Of a stretch of 64,000 nucleotides of DNA, positions 40,533-62,360 are shown one piece after another (positions within the stretch are counted from its first letter, which is position 1; each line of letters starts with the position of its first letter). The stretch is from Chaetoceros tenuissimus (Eukaryota; Bacillariophyta; Thalassiosirophyceae; Chaetocerotales; Chaetocerotaceae): NCBI GenBank assembly GCA_021927905.1, contig BLLK01000040.1, positions 1 to 64,000 of the forward strand, given 5' to 3'. The notes beneath the pieces are model-generated. The model ran no database searches. It had not been told where the DNA came from and saw only the letters and a list, made by a program, of their open reading frames with translations. The translations under genes and the position numbers were made by a program.

Positions 40533-40886
40533 CAAGGCAAGCAAAAATCGGATTGTTAGTTTTTTTAATAGTGAACGATGTAATGCGATATGTACTGAAA
40601 TTAAGTGGTACTAGTTCCAAAAAAAAGAAAAAATAAGAAAGAAGCAAAGTACAACCCGTACTACCTAGTTCGTCAGGGATAAACAATGATACGCCAAGAC
40701 AAATGACGTAAGAGAAAGATTCAAGTTGAACCAAACATACAATGGATATGCTTGCGTAGGAATCTCTGTTTGCAACGAACTTTCATCTCAAGGCTTTGCC
40801 ATAAAGTGAAATCGAATCAAGTAGGTTTCAGAATAAGGTACCCTCTGATCACTGAACGATTAGTATTTTACTATCTATCTCTAACA

Positions 40887-43157: not shown

Positions 43158-43250
43158 AAGATTGGGTCCGTAGATGCTGTTAAGGTAGTTGATAAGCTAA
43201 AAACTACTACATCTACGGACGAGTCTAGTTACAATAATATTCAGATTGAA

Positions 43251-44099: not shown

Positions 44100-47000
44100 A
44101 GCACAGCAATTTGGACCGTGATAGAAGAATCACTCTTGGAGACAAGGATTCAGTCTTAACAGATTATACGGAAAAGGCTGCTAGACCTGATGATCCAGAA
44201 GCTGCAGTCGAGGATTGGGATGTTTACAGTGTTGAAAGTTTTCATTCTAGAATGACGGTTGGTAGTCAGTTTGCTCCTTTAGTGTGCACTGGAACTTATG
44301 ATGCTGAGAATCACTCTAGACTTTTTAATGCGCTGCGAGGCATGCTTCACAGGAGATACCGTAAGAATGTCACAAGGAGTCTTCTCAAACATCTGCGATC
44401 AGAGTATGACAACCGTAAGTCTACGGTATTCAATTCAGAAGCGCTCACACTGAGAAAATGCCAAATTGTAGAAAGTATTGAAAGGTTGAAAACTAAAGGA
44501 TTGATCTTGGAATGTGAAGATGAAAAGGCTATCTTGGATAGATTCAATTTCAATGATGCAGATGAGTTGGCTGTTCCTATACAACCTTGGATAACGAGGA
44601 GGAATGAAGTACTGAAGCAGAATAAGAGCAAGGTTCGAAAGAAGAAGCGTAAGAAGGAAGATACGTTGGGCCAGGAGCTCTTGACGGATATCGAAGTAGG
44701 TAGTGATGCAGTTGGTAGAGCAGCTGAATCAACCTGGTGGGAATGGTCAGCAGGATCTACTCTTTTCTTCTGGAGATGGCCTAAGAGGCTGTGGAAATCC
44801 ATTAGAGATGGTACTAAGGTATTTGTAGACAAGAGCAAGTTACCTAAGTACCGCAAGGAGCCGTCTTGGCCCAAGGACGAAGATCAACATGAAAAATTGA
44901 AGTCTAAGCTGAGAAAGGTCCGTGACAGGAAATATATTAGACTGGGCTATGTTACTAGTCTTACTGGATACTTTGCAGTACCAAAAGCTGGTACAGATAT
45001 TCGTGTAGTCTATGATGCTACAAAGTGTGGTCTGAACGATGCAGTGTGGGCTCCAAACTTTTTTCTTCCCACAGTAGACTCCATTCTGAGAAATGCTTGT
45101 TCTTTAACATGGTTCGGAGATATAGACTTAGGTGAAATGTTCCTTAACTATTTTCTTGACGAAGAGATTCGACCTTATGCAGGAGTTGACGTGTCTGAGC
45201 TTGAAGGTGGTAACAAACGGATTTTTGAACAATGGATCCGTACCTTAATGGGATTTCGCTGCTCACCATATATTGCTACTCAAACTTTCGCTTGGGGAGA
45301 GGAAATTATTACTGGAGATTTAGCAGATGATGACAATCCATTTGCGTGGGACGAAATGAAATTGAACCTACCCGGTTCTGAAGGTTATGACCCGACTATG
45401 CCTTGGATGTATAAGTGGAACTCCAAGCACAAGCGTATGCCTGCCTTCTTTGGAACGTATGTGGATGATGTCAGGACTGGAGCTTGGTCTGAGGCTAGCT
45501 GTAGAAGTGCAACGCGTACAGTCGCATCTGTAGTTAATTATTTGGGCCAGCAAGACGCTGCTCGAAAGAGACGTCCACCTAGCAAGGTCCCTGGTGCTTG
45601 GGCTGGATCCATGTGCATTTCTGTTGATGGCGTGGGTTTATTTGTATTGTCTACTCAAAGCAAATGGGAAAAGGCAAAGGGCATCATAGAGAAATGGGCG
45701 GAGGAATTAGGCAATGATGCTAGAGTGCAAGTGAATCACAAGGAGATGGAACAGGATGTTGGCTTCTTGTGCCACATCAGTAGGACTTACCCTAAATTGT
45801 TCCCGTATTTGAAAGGGTTCTACAATACACTTAATTCCTGGAGGTTTGGAAGAGACGATGACGGTTGGAAAATCACGTCTAAGACCGCGTTGGTGGAATT
45901 AGCTAGTGAAGATAGGTCCAAGGATGACGATAGGGTGGTCGTTACTGAGTCTTCTGCTTCTAGGACTTATCATGGAAGAAAGAAGTCTCAGGCTGACGAA
46001 GATCCTCCTAATAAGGTGCAGACAGTGGGACGCTTTAAGTTTGACGTGGAAGCGATGGGCACTTTGTTGAAAGGAAATACACCCTCATTGAGATTGATTC
46101 GTGGTGAACGCATTTCAAAGGTTACTTACGGCTTTGGAGATGCCTCTGGCGGTGGTTTTGGAGGATCTTGGGTTCATGGAGATGCAATCATCTTCAGGTT
46201 TGGAATTTGGGGATCGGATATGGATATGGCTTCCTCTAATTTACGCGAGGCTACCAATGATGTTGCCTCTCTTGAATCAATGGGAGAGCAAGGTTTGCTT
46301 GATGGAGTAGAAGTGTTTTTCTTCACAGATAATTCGACGGCGGAAGCTGTATTCTACAATGGAAACTCAAAGAATGAGGCACTCTTCCGGCTGGTACTTC
46401 GCCTACATAAGTTGGAGATGATCTACAGCTGCAAAATTCATTTCATCCATTGCTCGGGGAAAAGAATGATTGCACAAGGCACTGATGGTCTTTCGAGAGG
46501 CAACTTAACTGCGGGAGTTATGGCTGGAAAAACCATGACGTCTTTCATCCCTATACATCTCAATGCTTTTCAAAGATGTGATCTGCTCAAATCTTGGCTG
46601 CTAACGTGGTTGGGCAAAGAGACTGAGTTTTTAGATCCTATTGATTGGAGTGTCAGAGGCCACGACATTGTGAAAGGCAAATTTGAGATCAACATCGATG
46701 GAATGAAGGCACCTGTTGTGAAGAACGGTTCCTTTGTTTGGTGTCCTCCTCCATGCTTGGCAGAAATAGCTGTGGAAGAATTGAGAAAGGCTAGACATAA
46801 GAGAACCGGGTCTCGTCATCTGTTTGTTGTTCCTCGCTTGATGCAACCAAAATATTTCAAACAGCTTCTGAAAGCTGCTGACTTAGTAATCTCTCTCCCA
46901 GTTGGACACCCTGCTTGGCCTGAAGAAATGTATGAACCACTAACCCTTGCTTTCGTTTTCCCTTTCCTTCCATACAGACCTTGGCAACTCAAAGGATCAG

Positions 47001-47248
47001 AAGGATTGCTTTCTGTGGGAAGGCAATTGCTATCTATGTGGAAAGAAAACTCGTGGACCGACCGACATCTTCTGCGGAAACTTTGGGGCTTCGAGAGATC
47101 ACTTCTTGGTATGCCGGAAGAGCTGGCATCCAAAGTGCTACAAGGCGACGGAGATGAAGTTTTACATCAACGAACCAGAAAACGACGAAGGAGTGATTTG
47201 GAAGAAGAAGAAGGATGTAAACAGATTCCTCACAGCAAGAAGAGGTGA
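44096..47248 (+). CDS. YR element 3 reverse transcriptase and RNase H
   Basis: Motifs in order: AGTDIRVVYDATKCGLNDAV, WFGDIDLGEMFLNYF (motif A), MGFRCSPYIATQTF (motif B) and FFGTYVDDVRTG (motif C). The RNase H follows with YGFGDASGGGFGGSWV (Asp), SSNLREATNDVASLE (Glu), VFFFTDNSTAEAVFYNG (Asp) and GTDGLSRGNL (Asp). This RT-RNase H arrangement without integrase or protease is the DIRS pattern. The frame has no early ATG near its start. Confidence 0.85.
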   Translation: MKHSNLDRDRRITLGDKDSVLTDYTEKAARPDDPEAAVEDWDVYSVESFHSRMTVGSQFAPLVCTGTYDAENHSRLFNALRGMLHRRYRKNVTRSLLKHLRSEYDNRKSTVFNSEALTLRKCQIVESIERLKTKGLILECEDEKAILDRFNFNDADELAVPIQPWITRRNEVLKQNKSKVRKKKRKKEDTLGQELLTDIEVGSDAVGRAAESTWWEWSAGSTLFFWRWPKRLWKSIRDGTKVFVDKSKLPKYRKEPSWPKDEDQHEKLKSKLRKVRDRKYIRLGYVTSLTGYFAVPKAGTDIRVVYDATKCGLNDAVWAPNFFLPTVDSILRNACSLTWFGDIDLGEMFLNYFLDEEIRPYAGVDVSELEGGNKRIFEQWIRTLMGFRCSPYIATQTFAWGEEIITGDLADDDNPFAWDEMKLNLPGSEGYDPTMPWMYKWNSKHKRMPAFFGTYVDDVRTGAWSEASCRSATRTVASVVNYLGQQDAARKRRPPSKVPGAWAGSMCISVDGVGLFVLSTQSKWEKAKGIIEKWAEELGNDARVQVNHKEMEQDVGFLCHISRTYPKLFPYLKGFYNTLNSWRFGRDDDGWKITSKTALVELASEDRSKDDDRVVVTESSASRTYHGRKKSQADEDPPNKVQTVGRFKFDVEAMGTLLKGNTPSLRLIRGERISKVTYGFGDASGGGFGGSWVHGDAIIFRFGIWGSDMDMASSNLREATNDVASLESMGEQGLLDGVEVFFFTDNSTAEAVFYNGNSKNEALFRLVLRLHKLEMIYSCKIHFIHCSGKRMIAQGTDGLSRGNLTAGVMAGKTMTSFIPIHLNAFQRCDLLKSWLLTWLGKETEFLDPIDWSVRGHDIVKGKFEINIDGMKAPVVKNGSFVWCPPPCLAEIAVEELRKARHKRTGSRHLFVVPRLMQPKYFKQLLKAADLVISLPVGHPAWPEEMYEPLTLAFVFPFLPYRPWQLKGSEGLLSVGRQLLSMWKENSWTDRHLLRKLWGFERSLLGMPEELASKVLQGDGDEVLHQRTRKRRRSDLEEEEGCKQIPHSKKR

Positions 47249-48497
47249 TTTGATCACTTCCCCGTTTCAGTGTGACTTTTGCTGGGCTGTCAATATTACT
47301 GGAAAGGAGGTTTCTCAATTCAATCAACAGCACAAGGTGTTAATGAGTTACATTCGCAGAGTCAATTTGGATATGATGTGGTCCAAGGAACCTAGTACAG
47401 TCTCTTCTACGATGAACAACCTAGTCAAAGCTAGAAAGAACAGTGCAAGATTGGGTTTGGATCCAGTGGTGATTCCTCAAGGTCCTTGGGAGTTAAGGGA
47501 CAATGCAGGCATGCAAATCGCGATTGAAATCTTGATACAGTCACAAGGAAAGGGAAGAAATGCAACAGGCTATCAGCAATTCGATTCGATCAGGAAGATA
47601 AGATCCAGCTATTCAAATGCTATACGTGGTAGTGCAGTTGGAGCCATCGATACCAAATTGAAGACTAATCGAGGAGTAACGTTTGGATTTGTTGGAGGTC
47701 CGACCGAATCTATACTGTTTGAGATGTTTATGCTTGGTCTAAGAAAAAGGATGGGAAAGGTTACCTGTCAAAACTTGGGTATCTCTTTTGAAGTGCTATC
47801 AAAATTGTTAGAGCTGTATGATGAAGAATTGGCTAGCGAGGACATTGGAAAAGATAGATTTCGTGAGATCATTGTTTTTGGCGCTGCTTTCGTGACTTTG
47901 TATGCTGCAGCATTAAGAGGAAATGAGGTCTTCTTCATGGAAAGGTCGGAACTTGTGAGAAGAAGAAACATGGGAGTAACTATTGATAAAGCATTGGAAC
48001 ATATTGTGGTTCCGCTGATGGGCAGATTCAAAGGAGAACATGGTGAAAGAAATTTAATGCTTGTAATGGCTCGCATATCTAGATCGGGTCTAGCTATAGG
48101 AAGATGGATTTCACAGCTCTCTGACCTGTTGCTCCAGGAAGGAAAACATATCGGAGTGGGGCCAGCGATATGTCATGAGGATGGTACTCCGTATAACTCA
48201 ATTGAATTGAATGGGGAGTTAGAATCTATGCTACTTCAAATTCAAGAGGAGTCGCCTGAACTTATTGACCCTAAGATTGACGTGAGAGCAAAGTTCAGTA
48301 TTAATAGATCTTTCCGAAGAGGAGCCACTACGAGAGTCAGAGAGAATGGAATAGATAGTCAAAGTTTGGAAATGAACAACAGGTGGAGAAAGCTACAAAA
48401 TGCTGGCGGTAGTGTGTCGTGTCTATCCATGAAGGATTTATACCTTGAAATTTCTCAAACCTTAGTCTCACGGTTAAAGTTTTCTCAGCACATCTAA
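46947..48497 (+). CDS. YR element 3 zinc finger and tyrosine recombinase
   Basis: The frame overlaps the end of the RT/RNase H frame by ~300 bp in another phase. A PHD-like Cys/His finger (CYLCGKKTRGPTDIFC ... CRKSWHPKCY) comes first, then a tyrosine-recombinase-like core: FGAAFVTLYAAALRGNEVFF (Arg-box), VPLMGRFKGEHG (mid Lys/His region) and SFRRGATTRVRENGI followed by NNRWRK (second Arg box and W). A catalytic Tyr would fall near DLYLEIS. The recombinase would join circular element DNA to the genome. The fold call is moderate because the second box lacks a textbook H-x-x-R. Confidence 0.65.
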   Translation: MLSFSLSFHTDLGNSKDQKDCFLWEGNCYLCGKKTRGPTDIFCGNFGASRDHFLVCRKSWHPKCYKATEMKFYINEPENDEGVIWKKKKDVNRFLTARRGDLITSPFQCDFCWAVNITGKEVSQFNQQHKVLMSYIRRVNLDMMWSKEPSTVSSTMNNLVKARKNSARLGLDPVVIPQGPWELRDNAGMQIAIEILIQSQGKGRNATGYQQFDSIRKIRSSYSNAIRGSAVGAIDTKLKTNRGVTFGFVGGPTESILFEMFMLGLRKRMGKVTCQNLGISFEVLSKLLELYDEELASEDIGKDRFREIIVFGAAFVTLYAAALRGNEVFFMERSELVRRRNMGVTIDKALEHIVVPLMGRFKGEHGERNLMLVMARISRSGLAIGRWISQLSDLLLQEGKHIGVGPAICHEDGTPYNSIELNGELESMLLQIQEESPELIDPKIDVRAKFSINRSFRRGATTRVRENGIDSQSLEMNNRWRKLQNAGGSVSCLSMKDLYLEISQTLVSRLKFSQHI

Positions 48498-48577
48498 TTT
48501 ACAGGTAGTTCAGTTGGTTACGCGCATTACGACTATCTATGAAAAGTCAAGGTCCCTGCTGCAACAGAGTCTCGCTT

Positions 48578-49122
48578 CTCTAAGTCTTTGGAACTATTGG
48601 GTTTCTTGTTAGTAAATGGCATTGCAAACTAATGAGTGAGTCCGACCTGATAGTATTGTCTGAAATGGATATATTTAGTAATGAAGGGGGGTTTTGTGCT
48701 TTGATGAAGACATGGCTTCATCTACCGCTGTACTATTGCTGTTCTAAACCAAACTATCATTGATAGTTTTGGAGGGGCACATTGAGAAGGTAAAAGAATA
48801 GATGGAGGGGAAGTGGATAGTGCAATCCATGCTTGACCGACAGCCTCTATTTCTAAGAGATGTTTTTAAGGTTTAATCACCTTAAACTCCTAGGATCTTT
48901 CCTGGAGTTAAAGTCTCGCCTTATCCCTTAGTATCCAGCCGCAGATCGATGTCAGAATCTTTTATCTCAGTATACCCCGAGTTACTAGCCAGCTGATGAT
49001 CCTGGTTAATATTTCTTTCTAGGATCAACTTCGGGCTAGGAGGGTGAGCCTGCTCACCCCCCTGCTATATAAGAGGTTTACCTCTTGTTGGACTATCCTA
49101 TTTCGGAACCAAAGACTTAGAT
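48578..49122. repeat. YR element 3 3' structured end
   Basis: Bounded by inverted CTAAGTCTTTGG (48580-48591) and CCAAAGACTTAG (49109-49120). It contains the same small hairpins and >85% the same sequence as 24802-25353. Its retention in a copy that lost all genes argues for a cis-acting role in replication or integration. Confidence 0.7.
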
Positions 49123-49185
49123 TAGTTGAGTAATACGTAATCCTGATCTACTGCATTTATCTTTAGTATCTACTTTGCATCCCAT

Positions 49186-49473
49186 GTACGTAGATTGATA
49201 CTATATATGTATAAACATCATTTTGTCCATTTGTTAAATATATATAAAAAAAGAACATAATGAGGACGAAAAAAAGAAAACATTTTTTCTGGACACATAA
49301 TTCCACCGCGTCATGTTAAATCTATGTACGTACAAGGCTACATATCCAAGGAAAAAAAAGGCGCGAAAATCAAAAGGGAAGACATTTTATATTCCCACTT
49401 ACTAAAAGGAAGGAAAGAAGCCTAACATATGTTTTTACAGCGAATGAAGAGTGAAACGAGAGAATCTATCTAC
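49186..49473. other. AT-rich spacer upstream of module M1
   Basis: It contains TATATA-rich stretches and a sequence near 49380-49430 (GACATTTTATATTCCCACTTACTAAAA) whose pattern recurs before M2 and M3. No gene is seen. Confidence 0.45.
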
Positions 49474-49724
49474 ACACAGATGTTTCCTTTGAAGTGCTGT
49501 GGTGCAGAGCTTGAGAAACTCTCCAACCACTAGTTGTCTCCGTGGACAGCGAGCCACAAAGGATAGTCTGTACATTCTCAGTGTTTATTGTTACCGAAGA
49601 ACGGAAGAGCTAGCTAGAAAAATCCTGCTGTACTTCTTGTGGAAGTGTACCTCTGAGCCATGTCGTCGTCGGTTCATGTACCTCTTATGGATGAGGAGCA
49701 GGTTCATTCAACTCCCTTGAATGA
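49474..49724 (+). repeat. Module M1 (251 bp), head of unit 1
   Basis: Nearly identical to 52375-52626 and 56467-56718, all in the same orientation and all ending at TTGAATGA. M1 lacks one T of a GGTTTCATG present in the other two, so its ATG (49660) stays open into the downstream gene. It could be a promoter with first exon, or a mobile-element end. Confidence 0.88.
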
Positions 49725-52124
49725 TCTGACATATGAAGCCTTTAGAAAACGCATTGCAAATTCAGCCTTTGCTTATTTGGATATGAGACAGTCAAGAGCA
49801 GAAGGAAATTTTTCCATGTTACACCTTAGTAAAAATGGAAAATTTACTGGATGTAAATTCCCTTCCAATGTGCGAGTGTATGGACGCAACACAACTGTAG
49901 ATGATGATATATTCTTTGTTGAGTGTCGAACATTTTCCAATTCGAAGCCATCCAGTATTGCAGCAATATTTATTGGATCCAACAACAAAGGATTTAGAAG
50001 ACAAAAGATAGGACTATACACAAATCCACATCTTGTATTGATTCAAGATATCATCTATGAAAATAATAGATTCCATTTATGTTTTCACTCACTCCGAGAA
50101 AATATAGATCTTCGAAACTCATTTCAGAAGAAAGAAGAGGAAGAATTAGATACCAGACAACTGAAAATACCAAGAAAAGAATTAAACAAACGTCCTAAAC
50201 ACCGAGAATATATTCAAGATGGTAAAAAGATTTCCATCAACATTTGGAAGGATGCAGGAATCCATAAACTATCAAAAGGAAATGGCGTGGATAAAGAGTC
50301 ATTCAATTTGGTCAATTCAATATTTAAATTGGAAAAAGTCGAACGGGTCCCAGTAGACAATGTGGAAGTCTTTCATTTAAATGGAATTTTTGGCATCGGT
50401 AACCATATCATTGCGAATAATGCGGAGAATCAAATGAAAAATTTGGATACTCTTGGATTGAATGGTTTGAAGAAACCAAGCACTTGGATGAATCAATACT
50501 CTCCGTCTTTTAAAGTGTTTGTTGAAAAGAGAACCACACTAAGAGTAGGCGAATCATTGTTGAGAAATTCTAAGGAAGAGATTATCAAAAAAAGAAGACG
50601 TTCAAAACAAAGATCACAACTCTATCCAAATGTACGAAAAAGCAATCTCAGTAAAGATACAACGCATTACATATGTAAACCATTTGCATGGCCTCCCAAT
50701 GTAGAACTTTTAGCAATTCCCTTCATGTCAAGAGATTGGGAAGAAGACGAGTTCGTAAGGTTTGCTTTCATAACCAAAAGACAGCTTTCTAAACTAAGGA
50801 AAGATTTCAAAAGTAATGGCATCCCTATGATAGAATACAACAAACAATTGAAGCAACTACATCAAGAAACTGCTAACCAATTTCAAATCAATTGGCCGAA
50901 AGATTTGAAATATAGAAAAATGAGTTGCAAAAAGGAGAATAGAATGACTGTGAGTGTGACGAAGAATATGTCTACTACATCATTTGAAACAGTAATTGAA
51001 AAAAGAGTTCAAAAAATTCGTTCTGACGATTCAAAAGGAGACTTTTCAATTGCAAATGGCTGTGTTGTATTCCGAGGCTATGTTTGGCCTTATCAGATGA
51101 CCGACAAAATGAAAATTGCAGAGAAAGCAATTGAAATATGCTACAGTGGATGTCAAACAGGACGACATTTTCCAGTGTATGGTATGTTTAAACATCATGG
51201 CAATAGAAAATCCAATCAATCCAATGCATCCGGCTTGGAACAGGAAGGATCTCAATGTAAACATGAATACTATGAACAAAACATCACATCAGCTTTAGCT
51301 CCAATTTGCCGAAGCTACATTAGTAGGCTTCATACTCAAGCGGTTGAGGCAGGAAGTCATTGTGGTGAGGTATTCATGCCTCAATTTTTAAATATATCCC
51401 ATGAAAACCACATGACAAATGTATTGGACATGATGCTAGTGACAACCCAAAAATTCTTCAATGGATTTCATGTCGATGGAGACCAAATGACAACAGCTGT
51501 TTACAAGGAATTTAAAAAACACCTCTTGAGTTTGTCGGATGAAGAGACCAAAGAATAGCAATTCGTAGGGAGTTGAGGAAATCAAACATTGACTACAACA
51601 ATGTACGAGGAGATGGCAATTGTTGGTTCAGATGCATTTCATTCCAATTACAAGGAACTGAATCAAATCATTTGCTTTGGAGAAGCATTCTATGTCAATG
51701 GATGATATTTCTAAGACAAAAGAAGGAGATGGATAAAGAAAAAGCTCTTGATTGGTTCGATGTAAATTTTGATTGGTATGATCAGTCCATGTTAGATATG
51801 AGTGAGAATGGTTCCTATATAGATGGATATGGTATGCAAGCTTTAGAGCTACTGTTACAACGACGTACTATCGTATTAAGTGAAGGTGATGAATTCAATG
51901 TACACTCAACGTCTGGTATGAAAAGTCTCGATGGTAAAAAACGACGTATTTTATACATGGTACTTACAGATCTTGAAGCAGAAAAGATAAGGGCCAGTGA
52001 AAAATATAGAATGGATCTCGCAGAAGCAAAAAAGATAAGTGATGATGCAGCCGAAGAAGTAAGACGTTCTGCTGAAGTGAACAATCATTACATTTGTATT
52101 GTACCACAATATAAAGTTGATTAA
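49660..52124 (+). CDS. Unit 1 protein: large unknown region plus C-terminal OTU cysteine protease, one frameshift
   Basis: Two frames overlap at ~51543-51558. The first (632 codons) starts in module M1. It includes GCKFPSNVRVYGRNTT, several basic stretches and, near its end, FFNGFHVDGDQM, whose H-x-D could be a metal-binding pair of a dioxygenase-like fold (weak). The second frame (51543-52124) lacks an ATG before its core: GDGNCWFRCISFQLQG gives the OTU Asp and Cys, and NNHYICIVPQY the catalytic His. A single frame change joins the two, so this is probably one host or transposon gene with a recent frameshift. OTU proteases cleave ubiquitin; OTU domains are also known in Helitron proteins, as in unit 3. 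The gene is followed by an AT microsatellite. Confidence 0.6.
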
Positions 52125-52374
52125 TTTTATAAATATATATACAATATATATATGTATATTATATATATCGATGAATGAAAATGAATTGTCTTCAACAGGA
52201 GGACTTAAAACAGAAAATTTGAAATGATTGAAGAATAGAGCTTTTGGAAAAAGGCACGAAAACTAGAGAACAAGACATTTTCATTCCACTTACTAAAATG
52301 AAAGAAGGAAGTCCAAAAAAAAATAAAAGTACACTGGATGGCTACGTTCTGTTCTGTTGGGCAGTAATAGAAGT
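52125..52374. repeat. AT microsatellite and spacer before module M2
   Basis: TATATATA-type repeats at ~52130-52170, then GACATTTTCATTCCACTTACTAAAA (in part), the same pattern as before M1 and M3. Confidence 0.5.
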
Positions 52375-52626
52375 ACACAGATGTTTCCTTTGAAGTGCTG
52401 TGGTGCAGAGCTTGAGAAACTCTCCAACCACTAGTTGTCTCCTTGGACAGTGAGCCACAAAGGATAGTCTGTACATTCTCAGTGTTTATTGTTACCGAAG
52501 AGCGGAAGCGCTAGCTAGAAAAATCCTGCTGTACTTCTTGTGGAAGTGTACCTTTGAGCCATGTCGTCGTCGGTTTCATGTACCTCTTATGGATGAGGAG
52601 CAGGTTCATTCAACTCCCTTGAATGA
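52375..52626 (+). repeat. Module M2 (252 bp), head of unit 2
   Basis: Matches M1 and M3 with a few more substitutions (for example GAGCGGAAGCGC). Unlike M1 it is not followed by an open frame on its own strand; the first gene after it runs the other way. Confidence 0.88.
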
Positions 52627-52761
52627 AGGGTAGTTATGGATATGTATATGTAGAGAGGTATCGATGGTGTAGTAACATGTGGAGTATGAATTGAGATGTA
52701 TCTTAAATGCAAGGTTGGACGTTGACATACAGACATGCAAATGAATTATGGAGAAGTCCAG

Positions 52762-53583
52762 TTATGGACCTTGATCACCTTCACCTGGAAGAACGAAAGT
52801 AGAGTATTGTGTTTTCAAAGTAATCAACATATTCTTAGCTTGTTCCAACGGAGTATTACTTCCGTAAATCATTTGCAAGGTGTCAGTATCTTCTAGAATA
52901 AGGTACCAATTGTTCAAGTTATTCTCAAAATCAAAGAGTAATTCCAAGATATTCCAAATATCGCTATCAAAGTAGCAGATGTCATTTAAACACAGACCTT
53001 CAGGAATACTCAATGGAAGAAGAACCCATGGATTGGATGGAAATTGATTGCCATTGTTTCTATAAGCTTCATTCATTACATCGACGAAGTCTTTTGCAAC
53101 CTTTTCAGCAAAGCTTCTTTCATCAGGAACATTTTCATCGATAGTACCAACTAATCCAATAAATTTTGTTATATAAACTGGATCGTCTGAGTACCAAATC
53201 TTGTCTCTATTATTAGATGCTAGAAAGTTCTTCATGGAAATAAGATGCAATTGAGCAGGATTTGATTCTCTTTCTAAAAACCCTTCAAAGTCATCACTGA
53301 CAGGCTTCATAAAAGGAACCACATGATTAGGTAAAGCATTTCCTTTCAAAGGAATACCAAAGAAAACTTTAGTATCATTTTTATTGTCAATAGCAAAGTA
53401 TCCCAAATGAGTCGTGCGCTTAGTTTGATTAGGAGGACAAACCTTTTTAACAATGCGACGATGACTTTTAATTTGGGATGGATGTTTTTTGGATGGAGAA
53501 GCAGAAGACGAAGGAGAAGAAGTGGATTGGTTAGTTGAGGAATTCTTTTTAGGGCGAGCCGTGTTTGTATAATCCTTAGTTTC
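52762..53583 (-). CDS. Hypothetical protein with Ser-rich N-terminal linker, spliced
   Basis: I do not recognise this protein. The 214-codon frame from the Met at 53406 extends upstream without a stop to ~53583 (ETKDYTNTARPKKN, a Ser/Pro/Lys-rich linker, then HRRIVKKVCPPNQTKRTTH). Just before that lies CTATAG, a plausible intron acceptor, so a first exon should lie at about 53.6-53.95 kb. The body has FGIPLKGNALPNHVVPFM, WYSDDPVYITKFIGLVG and ICYFDSDIWNILELLFDF. It is acidic at the end and has no membrane segment. It is the first gene of unit 2 and may be a passenger. Confidence 0.55.
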   Translation of the reverse strand, partial: ETKDYTNTARPKKNSSTNQSTSSPSSSASPSKKHPSQIKSHRRIVKKVCPPNQTKRTTHLGYFAIDNKNDTKVFFGIPLKGNALPNHVVPFMKPVSDDFEGFLERESNPAQLHLISMKNFLASNNRDKIWYSDDPVYITKFIGLVGTIDENVPDERSFAEKVAKDFVDVMNEAYRNNGNQFPSNPWVLLPLSIPEGLCLNDICYFDSDIWNILELLFDFENNLNNWYLILEDTDTLQMIYGSNTPLEQAKNMLITLKTQYSTFVLPGEGDQGP

Positions 53584-53670
53584 TATAGATAAGATTGAAT
53601 AGAATAATAAATGGAAAGAAAAATAGACTTATACGGAACATAGTTAAAATGTAAATTTCTAAAATGCCAT

Positions 53671-53745
53671 AGAAATAAGGAAAATTACCATCAGAAATAA
53701 GGACAATTGCCATCAGAAATAAGGAAAATTGCCATCAGAAAATAC
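53671..53745. repeat. 24-bp tandem repeat, three units
   Basis: AAATAAGG(A/G)(A/C)AATTGCCATCAG-type units in the interval between the divergent unit 2 genes, possibly within an intron of the left gene. Confidence 0.7.
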
Positions 53746-53972
53746 TTGGAAAAACCGTATACCAAGTAATGTATATGTAGCAAGTACCATAGCCACATAA
53801 CGTTAGAGCCATTTCAAATAATGGTATTGCCAAGAAGCGAAAGTTAAAGAAACACTCCACAGCACAAAACACAAAACGTATCTTTTTACCTTCTCAGGTG
53901 TCAACATATCTTTACCTTACATAGGTATCAATATCATATCTTAATGTAAACAATCTTGGTTTCAATTCTAAT
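53746..53972. promoter_or_regulatory. Interval upstream of the LRR gene
   Basis: Divergent interval with no identifiable motif; it may also contain the first exon of the left-running gene. Confidence 0.3.
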
Positions 53973-54884
53973 ATGGATATTCCAGAGTTGGTAGTAGCAA
54001 CCTTCACATGGAAAGATAAAAGTTGTGTGTATAAAACGTACATTTATACAAACTCCAAGGGAGAGCAACTGAAGACGTTGTACTACGATGGTGTCAATTC
54101 TATTCCGGGCACAACAGTATTCAATGCACATCAAGATATACAGAGAGCCACTCCTCATTTTAGGAGACCAAATGATTGGATTGATCCAGTCATTCCTAAT
54201 ATTCAAGAGGAAAGAGCAAGTTGGAGGAGAATTCATATTCCTTCAACAGTGACCAACATTCATAACGCTGCTTTCTATCAGTGTAGGAATGTGCTTGAAG
54301 TAGTATTTGAAAATGAGGAAGAGTCTCAATTACAAAGGATTGGCCAAAATGCATTCAATGGATGTGGAGTGAAGAGAATTAAATTTCCAAGACATGTCAA
54401 TTTTAAAATTGGAGCGAATGCATTTTGGAATTCTCATTTGGAGTCAGTGTTTCTTCCAGAGAACTGTGTTTCAGTAGCACCAGGATGTTTCTTTTTTTCC
54501 AATGCTCTAAAGATTGTTCATTTCCATCCTACTCTTGAACTAGGAAGTATGAATGATCAATCGGATGCAAGATTTGGAAACTGTCGTCATTTTCGTCCAA
54601 TTGATAATGGTCATATGAATGGGGTTTGGAATCAAAACATTGACATTATTTTGAGAATCAAACATAATAGATATGAATTGCATAGAAATTGCACAAGAGA
54701 AAATCCTTCAATTGAAGTAATTGTAGATTCAATGGTGGAGAATAACATGAATGAGTTACGTTCTGAAGATTTATTCCATGCATCTGCAGTAGAATACTTG
54801 TCCACGAATCCCTACAAAGAAGAGCAGTTTGAAATGAAAGTTATCAAGAAGTACATTCTAAGAATGATGGGTGAAGTGGAATAG
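53973..54884 (+). CDS. BspA-type leucine-rich repeat (LRR_5) protein
   Basis: A 303-residue protein with an intact frame. Several LRR_5 repeats are readable: WRRIHIPSTVTNIHNAAFYQ, LQRIGQNAFNGCGVKRIKFP, IGANAFWNSHLESVFLPEN and VAPGCFFFSNALKIVHF. Such proteins are very numerous in diatoms and some other protists and are thought to mediate protein contacts; the actual function here is unknown. No signal peptide is obvious. It converges with the next gene (35 bp between stops). It sits between modules M2 and M3. Confidence 0.8.
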   Translation: MDIPELVVATFTWKDKSCVYKTYIYTNSKGEQLKTLYYDGVNSIPGTTVFNAHQDIQRATPHFRRPNDWIDPVIPNIQEERASWRRIHIPSTVTNIHNAAFYQCRNVLEVVFENEEESQLQRIGQNAFNGCGVKRIKFPRHVNFKIGANAFWNSHLESVFLPENCVSVAPGCFFFSNALKIVHFHPTLELGSMNDQSDARFGNCRHFRPIDNGHMNGVWNQNIDIILRIKHNRYELHRNCTRENPSIEVIVDSMVENNMNELRSEDLFHASAVEYLSTNPYKEEQFEMKVIKKYILRMMGEVE

Positions 54885-54919
54885 AAATCGAGATAATATT
54901 CATTGGTTTATCATTAACT

Positions 54920-56242
54920 CTATGGAGGCTCTTCATCAAATAGATCTTTTAAATGCATTAAAAATAAAATGTAGTCATTCACATCGTCTACTGATGCTCT
55001 CGAATTGACAAGCAGATAATCCAAAGCTGTGTGTCCAAAGTGATCTTGAGCCAAAGCATTGATGTCGTAGTGAAATTTGAAGGTATTCAAAAGCAGATTA
55101 GAATTGAATTGAGATGAACTGCATGTCGAATGAAAAGGTAAACTTAATTCAGTACTATGAAAGCATTCAATAGTACATTTCTCTTCCTCATCAGGTAGAC
55201 CATCGTAGTAATCATCATACATGCTAGTATCCTTATCATTGCTAGAACTGGATTTCTTGTCTTCAGTTACGCTGGTATCCTTATCATTTCTGGAATTGGA
55301 TTTCTTGGATTTCTTATCTTCAATAAGCACGACTTGAAAGTTTTGATGAAAGATTAGAGGCATATATCTCAACCGTGTTTGCACATACTGTAGTGACAAT
55401 ACCTTTGAGGGCCTTTTCATAAATAGAAGGGGATCGGGACATATATAATTCAAACTCAGTTGTGAAGACTTCTTCAAGATTCGCAACAAAAGCCTGGCAT
55501 TGTTCGTGACGACTATATTTGGTTCAATGATAGCTGTTTCAATGAATTTCTGCATTGAGTCTAAACAACATCGATGAATACAATGTGGAAAGTATCCTTC
55601 GTCTAGATTCTTATCAATAAATTGATGAAATACTTTGGGTTTAGTACCAATTTCATATCCAGCACATACACAATTGACATCGAATGTTTTCAGTAAGTCT
55701 GGTAATGAAATGTACCTATTCATTAAAATGAAATTGATACGTATATTGGAAAGTCTCATTGCACAACATGATGGTAAATCATTCAGTAGTTTCTGATTTG
55801 CGTAAAAAAAGTCATTCAACTTTGAATATTTACAAGAAACAATCTTTTTCATTGGTAATTCTTTGTACTTGTCCATTTTAGATAAAGACCAATCATATCT
55901 TTGTATCATGATTGGAAATACTGGTGTTCTCCTCTTTTTCTTGATTATTTTTTCAACAGGTATGTAAAAAAGATCTATATCATTGTAAAACGTTGACGAT
56001 AGATTGGTTTCCAGTTGTGAATGAATTTGTAGATGCTCTTTTATATATGGATCGTGTCGAATCATAGTATGAGAAGCAAAGGAGCCAGCAACATATACTT
56101 TAAACTTCAACTTTTCATAAAATGGTAATTGAAACCAATGAGGTCCCCATTTACATACTTCCTCTATCAGTTTTCGGAGTGAAAGTGGTAAGAATTGATT
56201 TGGATTGTGGATTAGAGTTGATTCTTTCATGATTAGATTCAT
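54920..56242 (-). CDS. Possible nucleotidyltransferase-like protein with ankyrin-like C terminus
   Basis: A 440-residue protein with an intact frame. KFKVYVAGSFASHTMIR followed ~35 residues later by FYNDIDLFYIP resembles the G-S...D-x-D signature of polymerase-beta-like nucleotidyltransferases. INFILMNRYISLPDLLKTFD followed by a cysteine-rich VNCVCAGYE is a block I associate with poorly known protist and giant-virus proteins of this kind. Near the C terminus a Ser/Lys/Asp-rich linker is followed by ALAQDHFGHTALDYLL, which looks like a single ankyrin unit. The function is a guess; the frame itself is clear. Confidence 0.5.
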   Translation of the reverse strand: MNLIMKESTLIHNPNQFLPLSLRKLIEEVCKWGPHWFQLPFYEKLKFKVYVAGSFASHTMIRHDPYIKEHLQIHSQLETNLSSTFYNDIDLFYIPVEKIIKKKRRTPVFPIMIQRYDWSLSKMDKYKELPMKKIVSCKYSKLNDFFYANQKLLNDLPSCCAMRLSNIRINFILMNRYISLPDLLKTFDVNCVCAGYEIGTKPKVFHQFIDKNLDEGYFPHCIHRCCLDSMQKFIETAIIEPNIVVTNNARLLLRILKKSSQLSLNYICPDPLLFMKRPSKVLSLQYVQTRLRYMPLIFHQNFQVVLIEDKKSKKSNSRNDKDTSVTEDKKSSSSNDKDTSMYDDYYDGLPDEEEKCTIECFHSTELSLPFHSTCSSSQFNSNLLLNTFKFHYDINALAQDHFGHTALDYLLVNSRASVDDVNDYILFLMHLKDLFDEEPP

Positions 56243-56466
56243 TTATGACACCTTCAATTCCTTGAGTATAAACTTATACTAGTTTTTTCTAGTGGGAATG
56301 TAGATAGTGACAATTCAGAAATGTCTTTAACATCTGTCAAAGAAATTGAATAGAAAGGACATTTTTCATTCCCACTTCTTTCCAGAAAAGAAAGAAGAGG
56401 AAGGCAAAGAAAGACAGTACTCGCTAACTAGTTGGCAACTAGAAAATAAACCCAGCAACAATCTAC
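56243..56466. promoter_or_regulatory. Interval between unit 2 and module M3
   Basis: Contains GACATTTTTCATTCCCACTT and the hairpin CTTCTTTC...GAAAGAAG at ~56375-56400. The first pattern is shared with the sequence before M1 and M2. Confidence 0.4.
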
Positions 56467-56718
56467 ACACAGATGTTTCCTTTGAAGTGCTGTGGTGCAG
56501 AACTTGAGAAACTCTCCAATTACTAGTTGTCTCCGTGGACAGCGAGCCACAAAGGATAGTCTGTACATTCTCAGTGTTTATTGTTACCGAAGAACGGAAG
56601 AGCTAGCTAGAAAAATCCTGCTGTACTTCTTGTGGAAGTGTACCTCTGAGCCATGTCGTCGTCGGTTTCATGTACCTCTTATGGATGAGGAGCAGGTTCA
56701 TTCAACTCCCTTGAATGA
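56467..56718 (+). repeat. Module M3 (252 bp), head of unit 3
   Basis: Nearly identical to M1. It ends in TTGAATGA about 150 bp before the Helitron reading frame. The small frame starting at its ATG stops soon after the module. Confidence 0.88.
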
Positions 56719-56871
56719 AGAGTAAATAGGGTATGAGACATTTCTATTAGAAACAAGGAAAAGGACTATTTAATAGATTCAGAAATACAGAAAACATATC
56801 ACACAACTATATCGTAATGAGCAATTTTGAGTATACAATCTCTTGCTTCATTCTATTATCAAAGACTAAAT

Positions 56872-59800
56872 ATGAATAGTAATTATGGAAATAAAATGCC
56901 ACATCCATTATTTAATCCACATAGATATGATGGTTTGGCTATACGATGGAATTGCAAACTATTCCTATTAAAAGAAGTAGATGGAGATGGAAACTGTTTC
57001 TATCGATCCATTTGTAAACATCCCTATTTTTCTAATCAAGGAATCACCCATGAAATTTTACGGGAAGATGCAGTTGCAAGACTCTCTTCCCTAATAAGAA
57101 ATGATAAAGAATTGGAAAAAGATTTAAGGAGTTGTGTAAGTAAGTATTCAGATCCATCCAATCATGATCGGGATACTTTAGAAAAATGCATTCTTGAAAT
57201 GGGTACAGATAAAAAAGAAGCGGGAATGTTTGAAATGGTATCTTTAATGGTTATTTACAAAATCAATATCATTTGTTTAATGGCAGATGTACAGAAAACC
57301 AATGCTTCATCAAGTTTAATACTCAGAAATATGTCTGAATTTGATATTATCACAGACATATTAGGAATGCCAACAATAGAGAAGCAGTATAGACCTTCCA
57401 AAAATTACAATGTATACATTCTTCATCATGCATTTACATGTGCAACGGAAGCAAATATAGACAATAATCATTATCTGTATTTAGAAGAAATTGATCCAAA
57501 TCAAAGCAATGGCCTTACCATTATTAATGAGGAAGCACATGATACTAGAAAAAAATTGCAAATGAAAGTAGCCCGCTCCATGGCAGGGCAATTTCAACGT
57601 GAAATTATCAAAATAAAAGATAGAAAGAGGAAACGCAATATATCCAAAAAATTGTCAACACAAGAAAGCAGAGCAAGGGATGCTCAGAGGAAGCGTACAC
57701 CAGAGAATAGAGCAAGGGATGCTCAAAGGAAACGTACACCACAGAATAGAGCAAGGGATGCTCAGAGGAAGCGTACACCACAGAATAGAGCAAGGGATGC
57801 TCAAAGGAAGCACAAAGCTCCATCAACCGAAGAAAGTAGAGCAAGGGATGCTCAGAGGAAACGCAACTGTCGAAAGAAAACCAACAAAACATTAAATGTA
57901 TCCTTCAAGACACCTATAACAGAAGACCTCACTCAATTTACAGAAGAGATTGATGCTAACTTTGAACAAAATATTGAAACAAATGTGATGTTAAATTACA
58001 TCAATGCTGGATATCACAAGTTTCCTAAGCATGAATTATCCAAGTCAAAAATTCTTGAAGAATTGAGTAAGGAAATGGTATCTGAGGAAGAATGCGATAA
58101 ATTGATAAGCTCAGTCCGATCAAAACTGGGCATGACCTATCCAGAAAAAGCTCCAGAGATATTAACTTGTTCAGTTTGTGGAATCAAGGATATCAATCGA
58201 GAAGATACTCGTTTCCATCGATGTTCAATTTCAGAGTTTGGTAATATACTTCAATGTAAAGAAGAAGAAGTACAATTATTTCAGAATAGAAAACAGAAAT
58301 TATCAGGAATAAGATTACCAATCAATGAAAAAGGAGATACAGATAAATTTGATTTATGGAAGCTGTACTCTCGATATGAAACTGAGGATAGCAATGGGCA
58401 ATATGCTCTCTACTATTTACATCCAGAATTTGTTGAAATTGATGAAAATAAAAAAGAATGGATCCAAATTTGTACGGGATGCTATTCTGATTTAAAACAG
58501 AACATAGTTCCATCTTTTAGTATTGCCAAAGGTATTGACTTTGGGGATTTGAATAGGTGTAATTTGACATGTCCCAACAATATAGAAACAATGTGTACTG
58601 CCATGTATCGACTCTTCATCAAAATAGTGAGAATCAAAGAATCTCTGATTACCAAGAAAATGTCAGGACATGCTATTTGTATGCAACAGGATGACATAAC
58701 ATACAATAGAAGAGACAACAGTCAATGGCATATTCTTGATTTATTACGAGATAATATATTCATTCTCTTTCTTAGTCCAAATGGTGATACGGATAAAATG
58801 ATGGATTGGTTTTATGGTTCTTCAGAAATGAAAATAAGATCCCATGTTTTATTTCAACAGCTTACAGTTCAAAAATATGTCAATGCTCTTGCTCAATCAA
58901 AGAAGTTCCATTATCCTACTTATGAGGAAATTGAATCTCAACTGCGTAACTTTGATTGGAAAAAACTCAAGGATCTTCAGACTTCATATGAAAATAAACA
59001 AATGTATTTCACAGATGAAAGTTTTGATTACAATCATGTATCTGAAATCATCGATGAAGAATCAACTAACAATGAAGAAACACCTTTGCAAATGAGTTAC
59101 TCAACAGTACTGCCAGATATTGATATTTTGTCAAATGCATCATCACATTCAAGTAATGATGATGAGAGTGACAGTGATAGTGACAACAATGAAATTCTTC
59201 AAGATAGAGAAAATCCAAACATATCTTCCATTCGAAATTATTTACGTCAAGTGCAAGAAGCACTTATACAACCAAAACCTTTTCCAATGAAAAGAGGATC
59301 AAAACTAGCCAATGAATTCATAGAAAATGACAAATTAATAGCAGGCTGTTTTCCAAAAGTCTTTCTATTTGGACGTGCTTATGGAAAAAACAAAGGAGCT
59401 TTAAGTACAAAGCAAACTCATCACCTTCTCCTTCAATATACAATGCATGCAAGTCATTGCAAGGAACTTCTAATGTTCCTTTTCAATCAATTTCTTCGTC
59501 ATAATAGTATGCAAGCGATAGTAGCTTCTTTAAAAGATCACAACACAAGTGAAGCTTTGTCAGAATTCAAAAAAATTGTTGGAAGTCCAGATTTTGAGGA
59601 CCGTTTGGCAGCAGCAATTGAAAATCCTACAAGTCCAGAAGCTAAACGTTTATCAAAAACTCTCTTAGATGTTTTGCTCATTCATAAAAGTGATGTTATC
59701 AGTGGATTGATGACAAAATTGAGAAATAAAAGCAATCAATATTCTCTCATGAGAAAATATGGACCTCAGTCTTGCTTTGATACAATAAGTTTAGATCTAT

Positions 59801-60900
59801 ACAACAATTTCAATATAATACGAGCTTCAATGGAATCCTACAACAATACAAAGTTTCCATCAGTATGCAGTAATCCATCTGAATTGGTAGAAGCAGCAAA
59901 AAATGGCGCATCATATGAAGGTCATGATTTATCATATCCTTCAAGAATGAATTATATCAATTCAAATCCAGTTGCAGTAGCCAATGAATACAATCATATT
60001 TTGGATACATATTGCTTGGAGTTGTTTGGACTGAGGTTCAATGATACTCAAAGTACTGGTGAAAAGGTAAAGAAAACCGACAATATTCTGAACCGTGCCA
60101 AAGGAGTTTATGGCACTATTTATGAAATGTGTGGTGCAACGGATGTTACTAAAGGGGGTAAATTGCATGCACATTTATTGCTATGGAAGGCTATAAATTC
60201 AGAAGTTCTTACAAGATTTTCAAAAGATGAGAAATTGACCCAAAAAATTAGTGAAATCATCAATTCTCAATTTAATACACACTACCATCCAGCGGTTCTA
60301 ATTTACTTTCTCTTGGACAATTTTATCAGGGAAATAGACCCATTTCATACCAAGTATCCTCATCTACGAGCAGGTCATCTAATTACACCTCTTTTAATGA
60401 CAACACCTCTTTCTCTACAAACAAAAGAAGGAAAACAATTCTGTGAAATTCATTCTTCTCGAGCTCAAATGCATCTACATAAATCTCGCTGTGAAGAAGG
60501 AAAGCATGGCAAGGATGGATGTGCAGGAAATTATCCTCGACCAACCAAAGATATCTATGGACCAATTGTATTAACTGGAAGTGAAAATGATAACGGTGAC
60601 TTGGAAGTTTCTATTCATGCATTGTATCCAGATACATTGGACTCCGAAGAAGAGAATTCAGAAGAACAATTACCACCATCCAATAAAACTCCAATAGAAA
60701 TTTTAGAAGATATTTTTACCAAAAAGGATGAGGTAGTTAAGTGGGATACTTATCGACCACAAGTGGAAAATTTACCAGCTACAGATGACACTAATGCAAT
60801 GATAGACAATATAATGAACATTGTCAAAGAATTTCCCATGATATCCACCATTGTTGAATCTATTCTAAAACAAATGAAAACCAATGAAGACTTACTCTGA
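56872..60900 (+). CDS. Helitron Rep protein, N-terminal OTU protease and HUH endonuclease
   Basis: 1,342 codons from the ATG at 56872. The OTU domain is at residues ~35-220: KEVDGDGNCFYRSICKH gives Asp/Cys, NNHYLYLEEID gives His. Five copies of a 13-residue basic repeat (RARDAQRKRTP-x-N) follow at 57660-57870. A Cys-rich segment (CSVCGIKDI ... CTGCYSD), then the DUF6570-like CNLTCPNNIETMCTAMYRL and KMSGHAICMQQD. Helitron_like_N blocks follow: LIAGCFPKVFLFGRAYG, RMNYINSNPVAVANEY and KGGKLHAHLLLW with the H-x-H metal site (60163-60174). The protein would nick and join transposon DNA. An in-frame TGA at 60898 ends it, but the homology continues in the same frame. Confidence 0.75.
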   Translation: MNSNYGNKMPHPLFNPHRYDGLAIRWNCKLFLLKEVDGDGNCFYRSICKHPYFSNQGITHEILREDAVARLSSLIRNDKELEKDLRSCVSKYSDPSNHDRDTLEKCILEMGTDKKEAGMFEMVSLMVIYKINIICLMADVQKTNASSSLILRNMSEFDIITDILGMPTIEKQYRPSKNYNVYILHHAFTCATEANIDNNHYLYLEEIDPNQSNGLTIINEEAHDTRKKLQMKVARSMAGQFQREIIKIKDRKRKRNISKKLSTQESRARDAQRKRTPENRARDAQRKRTPQNRARDAQRKRTPQNRARDAQRKHKAPSTEESRARDAQRKRNCRKKTNKTLNVSFKTPITEDLTQFTEEIDANFEQNIETNVMLNYINAGYHKFPKHELSKSKILEELSKEMVSEEECDKLISSVRSKLGMTYPEKAPEILTCSVCGIKDINREDTRFHRCSISEFGNILQCKEEEVQLFQNRKQKLSGIRLPINEKGDTDKFDLWKLYSRYETEDSNGQYALYYLHPEFVEIDENKKEWIQICTGCYSDLKQNIVPSFSIAKGIDFGDLNRCNLTCPNNIETMCTAMYRLFIKIVRIKESLITKKMSGHAICMQQDDITYNRRDNSQWHILDLLRDNIFILFLSPNGDTDKMMDWFYGSSEMKIRSHVLFQQLTVQKYVNALAQSKKFHYPTYEEIESQLRNFDWKKLKDLQTSYENKQMYFTDESFDYNHVSEIIDEESTNNEETPLQMSYSTVLPDIDILSNASSHSSNDDESDSDSDNNEILQDRENPNISSIRNYLRQVQEALIQPKPFPMKRGSKLANEFIENDKLIAGCFPKVFLFGRAYGKNKGALSTKQTHHLLLQYTMHASHCKELLMFLFNQFLRHNSMQAIVASLKDHNTSEALSEFKKIVGSPDFEDRLAAAIENPTSPEAKRLSKTLLDVLLIHKSDVISGLMTKLRNKSNQYSLMRKYGPQSCFDTISLDLYNNFNIIRASMESYNNTKFPSVCSNPSELVEAAKNGASYEGHDLSYPSRMNYINSNPVAVANEYNHILDTYCLELFGLRFNDTQSTGEKVKKTDNILNRAKGVYGTIYEMCGATDVTKGGKLHAHLLLWKAINSEVLTRFSKDEKLTQKISEIINSQFNTHYHPAVLIYFLLDNFIREIDPFHTKYPHLRAGHLITPLLMTTPLSLQTKEGKQFCEIHSSRAQMHLHKSRCEEGKHGKDGCAGNYPRPTKDIYGPIVLTGSENDNGDLEVSIHALYPDTLDSEEENSEEQLPPSNKTPIEILEDIFTKKDEVVKWDTYRPQVENLPATDDTNAMIDNIMNIVKEFPMISTIVESILKQMKTNEDLL

Positions 60901-61716
60901 TTTTACAGTTACCTTCGAAATTCCTTGCCAGACTGTAATGGATTGGTTGTGGCCCATAACAACACTATAAGTCTTGCATTTGGAAGTAATTGTGCCAATT
61001 ATGTTCTCGGGAATACTACAGATAGTATTAATGCTTCATTTTATGTGGTACCATATCCAGTTGAAGGCAGTAAAGATATCAAACATGCACTTTCAATTTT
61101 AGCATATGCACATGAGATGTATGAAAAGCATGGGAGTCAAGGTACAGACAGTGGATTAGATCAAAAAGTTCGTGTATTACTTGAGAAAGTATACAACAAA
61201 ATAACATCCTACATGGAATTTTCTGAATTCTTAGTAGCTTCGTTTCTATTGGGTGGTACACAACTTCTCTGTACTCAAGAATTCAGAGGCATCAATGTTA
61301 AAGATCATGTTGTATATACAGCTCGCTGCAAAGATTTTGATTCTAATAGACAAACAACAAAAGGCACACTAGCTATAAGAAAGGAGAGAGATGAATATGC
61401 TGGTGAACCATGTAATTCTGCTGTATATAGAGTCTATAACCCATCCAAGGACTCTGATTATGACCTTTGTTCCTCACCTTATCCAAGCATTTATTCTTTT
61501 AGAGGATTTGCACTTCGGAACCTCAGCCGAAAGGAACTCACTGAAAATACTCAATTCAAACAAATTCCAATTTATAAAGAAACAAAGAAAAATACAATTG
61601 GTCGCTCATCAAACAAATGATACCAATTAGCTCAAGGACACAAATTGAAATTTTCCCATGAACTACGATTAGCATCAAAACAGGTAGTAATGAGAGTCAC
61701 AGGTAGAAGTACTGGA
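60901..61716 (+). pseudogene. Helitron Rep continuation with catalytic tyrosine region
   Basis: In the same frame as 56872-60900, after one TGA. YLRNSLPDCNGLVVAHN and SNCANYVLGNTT are followed by INASFYVVPYPVEGSK, where the Y-x3-Y spacing fits the two catalytic tyrosines of Helitron Rep. FSEFLVASFLLGGTQLLC follows. A second TGA lies at 61618-61620, and the same frame goes on with YQLAQGHKLKFSHELRLASK to the copia insertion at 61717. Two TGA codons in one frame mean decay, or, less likely, small in-phase introns or recoding. Confidence 0.65.
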
Positions 61717-62040
61717 TGTTGAGATGAAGGCGCCCGGTCCAAAGACTAAATTAGTACAGATGAAGAAACTTTACCGGGATGCCGTTATGGCACAGAATTC
61801 AGTGGTCCACGAGGAACTGAGAGAAAGTAGAGACTTGTACTGAATGAGTCCATGAGCTCATTCAATAGAAACAATCCTGTTTCGATAACCTAAATATACG
61901 ATATACGAAGACCAAGTATTGTCTAGTCCTATAGAGCTTAAATAGCACCGTTATACGGGTAGTGACAAATAGACCTTATTTCCAACATTGTTTCTATTGA
62001 AATTATTCATTAGACAATCTTCGTACACAACTCATAACCC
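61717..62040 (+). repeat. Probable 5' LTR of copia element 3
   Basis: Begins TGTTGAG and lies directly before the coding part. The right limit is a guess, since the matching 3' LTR is outside the window. Confidence 0.5.
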
Positions 62041-62058
62041 AATACACATTCACCACAC

Positions 62059-62355: not shown

Positions 62356-62360
62356 GCAAA

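What the first reader, a model, noticed from the sequence alone, without database searches (positions are those of the whole stretch)
49474..56718. Three near-identical 251-252-bp modules heading three gene units
M1, M2 and M3 have the same orientation, the same sharp right end (TTGAATGA) and a similar preceding motif (GACATTTT...TTCCCACTT). They head an OTU gene, a set of three unrelated genes and an OTU/Helitron gene. This looks like a family of units with a shared promoter/first exon or a shared Helitron end, arranged in tandem. It is the best candidate here for an undescribed system: large Helitron-related units carrying passenger genes.
Basis: partly seen in the sequence, partly recalled or inferred. 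Interest (0 to 1): 0.75.

Follow-up and report, generated by a model that had tools for sequence, protein, structure and literature searches.

The report
Three-copy gene-head repeat, origin unresolved
A 251-letter stretch occurs three times in the same direction within about 7 kilobases, each time about 100 letters after a short conserved motif, and most likely is a copied promoter-and-leader region of a gene rather than the end of a rolling-circle transposon; it is a real but modest finding.

Summary
Three same-strand copies of a 251-252-bp module (M1 49474-49724, M2 52375-52626, M3 56467-56718) are 97-99% identical over aligned positions, sharply bounded, and end on the palindrome TTCATTCAA-CTCCC-TTGAATGA(A). 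Each follows a weaker conserved box A (GACATTTT..ATTCCCACTT) whose core starts 93, 101 and 109 bp upstream; the spacer between is not alignable. The window holds no other copy.

Best reading: box A is promoter-like and the module is a transcribed leader plus first codons, a gene head copied or homogenised recently. It fits M1 best, M3 only if an intron is assumed, and M2 poorly, since the next listed ORF is on the other strand.

The Helitron reading is not supported: units 1 and 2 share no right end other than box A, CTRR follows the hairpin in M1 only, and the Helitron-like ORF lies behind one copy. SINE and TIR tests were negative, and a structured RNA got no support. A module GC of 45-46% in a 34% block keeps a mobile or TE-derived origin open. 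No genome was held, so copy number and expression could not be tested.

The parts
49355..49420 (+). Box A of M1, with GACATTTTATATTCCCACTT at 49381-49400
   Evidence: BLASTN 78.8% to 52248-52311; 0 of 500 shuffles as good; exact match
49474..49724 (+). Module M1 (shared with M3 from 49468)
   Evidence: GC 0.462
49703..49725 (+). Right-end palindrome of M1 (one mismatch to the 9-bp arms)
49660..51558 (+). 632-aa ORF of unknown family; possible starts 49660 and 49687 lie in the module, the next in-frame ATG is residue 42 (49783)
   Evidence: two sub-threshold Pfam matches; no PDB match up to E=1
51573..52124 (+). OTU-like ORF, out of frame with the 632-aa ORF
   Evidence: PDB OTUD3 4bou E=1.9e-4; Pfam Peptidase_C65 0.0028 and OTU 0.015, below cut-off
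52248..52311 (+). Box A of M2
52375..52626 (+). Module M2 (similarity to M3 runs to 52632)
52605..52627 (+). Right-end palindrome of M2, perfect 9-bp arms
52762..53406 (-). 214-aa ORF, no family; opposite strand, between M2 and the LRR ORF
53973..54884 (+). BspA-type LRR (LRR_5) ORF, 303 aa
   Evidence: Pfam PF13306 E=1.8e-17, above cut-off
54920..56242 (-). 440-aa ORF, no family
56342..56397 (+). Box A of M3, with GACATTTTTCATTCCCACTT at 56358-56377
56467..56718 (+). Module M3 (shared with M1 from 56461, with M2 to 56724)
56697..56719 (+). Right-end palindrome of M3, perfect 9-bp arms
56827..60900 (+). 1357-aa ORF: OTU-like start, Helitron Rep-like C-terminal part
   Evidence: Helitron_like_N E=0.0089 whole ORF, 0.0011 for 58900-60900; Peptidase_C65 0.0069 and OTU 0.043 for 56872-57540; all below cut-off; no OTU-named PDB match up to E=1; GKLHAHLLLW read directly
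60925..61620 (+). Continuation ORF in the same frame after one stop; Rep-like by eye only
   Evidence: no Pfam support

Best explanation
The three places are copies of one gene head: a promoter-like box A about 100 bp upstream and a transcribed leader (the module) that carries a 5' untranslated region, a 17-residue upstream ORF and the first codons of a protein. In M1 the head still runs into its ORF. In M3 it would be joined to the OTU/Helitron-Rep-like ORF by a short intron, and in M2 it heads nothing obvious and may be a decayed copy. The near-identity of the module beside an unalignable spacer means that the module was copied recently or homogenised by gene conversion, while box A is older or held by selection. 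Shown: copies, boundaries, box A, the in-frame ATGs. Inferred: transcription, splicing, promoter role, conversion.
For: Box A is conserved before all 3 copies (0 of 500 shuffles as good for each pair) and has no other match in the window below E 0.86 (nhmmer). Identity is 0.63-0.78 in box A, 0.30-0.42 in the spacer, 0.97-0.99 in the module and 0.37-0.45 downstream, on the alignment. In M1 the 632-aa ORF has in-frame ATGs at 49660 and 49687, both in the module, and then none before residue 42 at 49783; MDEEQVHSTPLN is read from the same ATG in all 3 copies. In M3 a donor-like GT at 56722 (AGA|GTAAAT) is phase-compatible with AG sites inside the Rep-like ORF, for example those ending at 56864 and 56879 (phases matched by hand).
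Against: No listed + strand ORF stands directly behind M2. The M1 ORF could start at residue 42, outside the module, and would then say nothing for it. M2 and M3 have one T more than M1, so the frame of the ATG that starts the M1 ORF ends after 11 codons there; without splicing the MDEEQ frame ends after 14 residues in both. In M3 all 4 AG sites listed after 56827 happen to have the right phase (7 of 15 in the stretch examined), so the phase match discriminates little. Module GC (0.448-0.462) is far above the block: 3 of 513 overlapping windows reach 0.448, mean 0.342, odd for a local leader. No transcript data.
Confidence: 0.42

Rival explanations
1. The module is a short mobile or TE-derived repeat that was inserted, or is targeted, about 50-70 bp behind box-A promoters, and has been co-opted as a leader in M1.
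For: Sharp edges on both sides beside unalignable spacer and downstream DNA; GC like that of the window's retroelement-like ORFs (0.41-0.46) rather than the surrounding 0.34; low divergence between copies; a palindrome at one end.
Against: No target-site duplication beyond chance: longest shared k-mers near the two ends are 6 nt (M1), under 5 (M2) and 5 (M3), where 88-97 of 300 random pairs reach 6. On M3: no terminal inverted repeat (715 of 1000 shuffles as good) and no Pol III B box with fewer than 2 substitutions; an A-box consensus match exists only on the minus strand. No A-rich or simple-repeat tail by eye. All three copies share orientation and box A.
Confidence: 0.28
2. The module is the 5' terminal region of Helitron-like elements, or one composite element with three 5' ends, carrying passenger genes.
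For: An OTU-like plus Rep-like ORF follows M3; A|TCTAC can be read at the left edge of M1 and M3; box A before M2 and M3 could be read as a shared right end of units 1 and 2; Fusarium FoHelis with repeated 5' ends are described (PMC5148889, passages seen).
Against: M2 lacks the TC start; CTRR within 30 nt after the hairpin in M1 only; box A has no sharp edge, also stands before M1, and ends 53-69 bp before the next module; inverted matches to the left end are at chance level and there is no exact 12-nt one; repeated 5' ends in FoHelis are typically under 200 bp.
Confidence: 0.1
3. The module is a small multicopy non-coding RNA gene with an upstream promoter element.
For: The profile fits such genes (recalled): conserved upstream box, free spacer, conserved body, abrupt end at a hairpin, high GC in an AT-rich block.
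Against: No Rfam match at E up to 1 in 49000-57200 and none at gathering score in the whole window. RNA folding is not better than shuffles: z -0.34 (M2), -0.09 (M3), 0.18 (M3 reverse strand). Substitutions do not spare the structure: 0.41 (M2) and 0.81 (M3) of random placements were as good; no compensatory change on a structure folded from M3. No T run at the end by eye. Box-to-body distance varies by 16 bp.
Confidence: 0.12

Closest known systems
Duplicated gene heads (promoter plus first exon) kept alike by gene conversion
   Same: Same strand, conserved upstream box, ATG inside, unrelated downstream DNA
   Different: Leader far better conserved than the promoter region; one copy heads no + strand ORF directly. 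General concept, recalled; not compared with a specific case.
Pneumocystis UCS/CRJE expression-site head
   Same: A conserved leader sequence joined at a defined junction to variable genes
   Different: UCS is single-copy and its junction element is present in the donor genes (passages of PMC2743713); here three heads and no shared downstream element
Helitron2/FoHeli with multiple 5' termini
   Same: Repetition of a 5' segment; a Rep-like ORF behind one copy
   Different: No matching termini and no common 3' end beyond box A; see membership test (PMC5148889, passages)

Membership tests
Helitron (canonical) | 5' TC at an A|T insertion point in all copies | tested here: not met
   M1 and M3 can be read A|TCTAC; M2 cannot
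Helitron (canonical) | 3' hairpin followed shortly by CTRR, same in all copies (distance and motif recalled) | tested here: not met
   Hairpin at the module's right end, but CTRR within 30 nt only in M1
Helitron2/Helentron | Asymmetric inverted repeat of the 5' end near the 3' end | tested here: inconclusive
   Only chance-level inverted matches in the window, but the 3' end may lie outside it
Helitron | Rep (HUH) plus helicase protein | tested here: inconclusive
   Rep-like part below Pfam cut-off; no helicase family listed for the 30 of 43 ORFs scanned at E up to 0.1; a gag-like ORF follows at 62361 and the window then ends
SINE | Internal Pol III A and B boxes, tail, target-site duplication | tested here: not met
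   (boxes tested on M3): no B box with fewer than 2 substitutions, no duplication beyond chance; an exact A-box consensus only on the minus strand; no tail by eye
TIR/MITE element | Terminal inverted repeats | tested here: not met
   Best end-to-end match on M3 is 5 nt, 715 of 1000 shuffles as good
Known RNA family | Covariance-model match | tested here: not met
Gene head (promoter and first exon) | Transcription start at the module's left edge | not testable with these tools
   No transcript data; no genome held
Gene head (promoter and first exon) | Reading frame running from the module into a gene | tested here: inconclusive
   Met in M1 (unless that ORF starts at residue 42); in M3 only with an assumed intron; not in M2

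The most novel reading that the evidence does not exclude
The module is a graftable expression head: a promoter-leader cassette that is placed in front of unrelated genes by recombination at its palindromic right end, used as a junction element, giving new genes a ready promoter, leader and start.
Probability: 0.06. Interest if true: 0.65.

Novelty: new member of a known kind. Interest (0 to 1): 0.27.

Why it matters
If the heads are expressed, this is a compact natural case of one leader serving different genes, useful for seeing how new genes gain promoters. If the module proves to be a dispersed repeat, it is ordinary repeat biology of a repeat-rich, eukaryotic-looking genome.

Tried and rejected
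Other copies: none in the window by BLASTN or nhmmer (next best nhmmer match E 0.13); no BLASTN match in the phage collection; exact 50-, 22- and 23-mers gave nothing in viral contigs; the 50- and 22-mers gave nothing in prokaryotic genome contigs. These collections are of viruses and prokaryotes, so the negatives say little about a eukaryotic source genome.

Relatives of proteins in viral contigs: none confirmed for the 632-aa ORF, the 1357-aa ORF, a 109-aa Rep piece or the LRR ORF. Structure of the 632-aa ORF: single-sequence AlphaFold model with mean pLDDT 33.7, too poor to search with. The 632-aa and 1357-aa ORFs are not related to each other by BLASTP (best E 0.07).

Coding exon across the whole module: a 78-aa frame of the majority sequence has no Pfam match up to E 10; reading the substitutions of M2 and M3 by hand, each changes that frame's residues, one of them to a stop, so coding constraint there was rejected.

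Helitron, SINE, TIR element and known RNA: see the membership test. Literature: searches on Helitron with OTU and diatom (3 papers), Helentron with OTU and hairpin (3), BspA with diatom and three more terms (1) and Helitron with diatom and rolling-circle (9) showed, by titles and starts of abstracts, no paper on this arrangement; a search on HLE2 terms found none. The organism is not known; a diatom is my guess from recall and rests on no call.

Full report
Observation. The three modules are real and in the stated places. Lengths are 251, 252 and 252 nt. BLASTN identities are 98.4% (M1/M3), 97.6% (M1/M2) and 96.5% (M2/M3). Against the majority sequence, M1 differs only by one missing T, M2 by five substitutions and M3 by three, a star-like pattern with M1 nearest the centre. 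No further copy was found in the 64-kb window: besides the three copies, nhmmer's best match has E 0.13.

Edges. The left edge is at ACACAG in all three copies and at ATCTACACACAG in M1 and M3. The right edge is TTGAATGA in all three and runs on to AAGNGTA in M2 and M3. It coincides with a palindrome TTCATTCAA-CTCCC-TTGAATGAA, perfect in M2 and M3 and with one mismatch in M1. Searched with up to 3 mismatches it gave 4 window matches, the fourth (3 mismatches) inside box A of M2, against a chance mean of 0.24. DNA downstream of the three copies is unrelated: local alignment scores were reached by 70, 406 and 174 of 500 shuffles.

Upstream box. Box A is conserved before each copy; 0 of 500 shuffles were as good for any of the 3 pairs. 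Its core GACATTTT starts 93, 101 and 109 bp before the module (positions). On the MAFFT alignment the identities for M1/M2, M1/M3 and M2/M3 are 0.78, 0.75 and 0.63 in box A, 0.30, 0.40 and 0.42 in the spacer, 0.98, 0.99 and 0.97 in the module and 0.37, 0.45 and 0.37 downstream. Spacer local alignments were matched or beaten by 994, 726 and 130 of 1000 shuffles. So the copies cannot be one uniform recent duplication of box A plus spacer plus module.

What follows. After M1 comes a 632-aa ORF (49660-51558) without a confident family, then an OTU-like ORF (51573-52124) in another frame (PDB OTUD3, E 1.9e-4); the two may be one gene broken by a frame change, or two ORFs. After M2, among ORFs of 120 aa or more, comes an opposite-strand ORF, then a BspA-type LRR ORF (E 1.8e-17) and another opposite-strand ORF. 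After M3 comes a 1357-aa ORF with an OTU-like start (Peptidase_C65 0.0069, OTU 0.043) and a Helitron_like_N match (0.0089 whole, 0.0011 trimmed), all below Pfam's cut-offs; its start has no OTU-named PDB match up to E 1. The motif GKLHAHLLLW was read directly and its meaning as an HUH motif is from recall. The same frame goes on past one stop to 61620. A gag-like ORF with a zinc knuckle follows at 62361, so any helicase part and the element's end would lie beyond the window.

Gene-head reading. In M1 the ORF's in-frame ATGs at 49660 and 49687 are both in the module, and the next is residue 42 at 49783. The ORF could also start there, which would remove this support. The frame MDEEQVHSTPLN is open to the module's end in all three copies. 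M3 has a donor-like GTAAAT right after the shared segment and phase-compatible acceptors, for example those ending at 56864 and 56879; but all 4 AG sites listed after 56827 have that phase, and 7 of 15 in the stretch examined, so the match is only suggestive (phases matched by hand). Unspliced, the frame ends after 14 residues in M2 and M3. The reading therefore holds well for one copy, possibly for a second, and poorly for the third.

Composition. The modules have GC 0.462, 0.456 and 0.448. Of 513 overlapping windows of 252 nt across 49.2-61.7 kb, none overlapping a module, the mean is 0.342 and 3 reach 0.448. The retroelement-like ORFs of the window have GC 0.41-0.46 and the ORFs of the 49.6-61.6 kb block 0.33-0.36. 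This keeps a TE-derived or RNA-gene origin of the module open.

Tests of rivals. Target-site duplications beyond chance, terminal inverted repeats, a good Pol III B box and a CTRR common to the copies were not found. An exact A-box consensus match on the minus strand of M3 stands alone. RNA folding gave z -0.34, -0.09 and 0.18 and single-stranded DNA folding of M3 z -1.79, with 10 of 200 shuffles as good. The substitutions do not spare a structure and show no compensatory change. No Rfam match was found. For a Helitron reading, box A is the only thing shared by the right-hand parts of units 1 and 2; it is not sharply bounded and stands before M1 as well.

Verdict. Copy number in the source genome, which decides between gene head and repeat, could not be measured because no genome is held.

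Noticed in passing
40652-49185: A long element with an RVT_1-like ORF (E 0.034, below cut-off); its two ends recur at 21358-21556 (79.6%) and 24779-25415 (88.2%), so a second, shorter copy seems to lie at 21.4-25.4 kb. Its right end is 170 bp from box A of M1.
   Followed up: partly
52280-52302: Box A of M2 holds a 3-mismatch version of the module's right-end palindrome, and the box-A profile has faint matches to the right ends of M2 and M3 (E 7.2 and 7.8); box A and the module's end might be distant versions of one site, or this is chance.
   Followed up: no
28739-30086 and 39241-40535: Direct duplication of about 1.3 kb at 95.6% identity, each copy overlapping a minus-strand ORF without a confident family.
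   Followed up: partly
8140-9894 and 16636-18359: Direct duplication of about 1.75 kb at 82% with further similar blocks around it (7481-8077/15918-16514; 9888-10185/18733-19030).
   Followed up: no
57658-57899: 39-bp-spaced repeat inside the OTU/Rep-like ORF, coding a repeated RARDAQRKRTP motif.
   Followed up: no
61717-63860: What looks by eye like the start of a long terminal repeat, then a gag-like ORF with a zinc knuckle (62361-63860); it separates the Rep-like ORF from anything to its right.
   Followed up: partly
51540-51580: The 632-aa ORF and the OTU-like ORF are in different frames with almost no gap, so the M1 gene may be broken or be two ORFs.
   Followed up: partly
49359-49368: GGCGCGAAAA in box A of M1 resembles an E2F-type site (recalled, not tested); M2 has one change there and M3 lacks it.
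   Followed up: no
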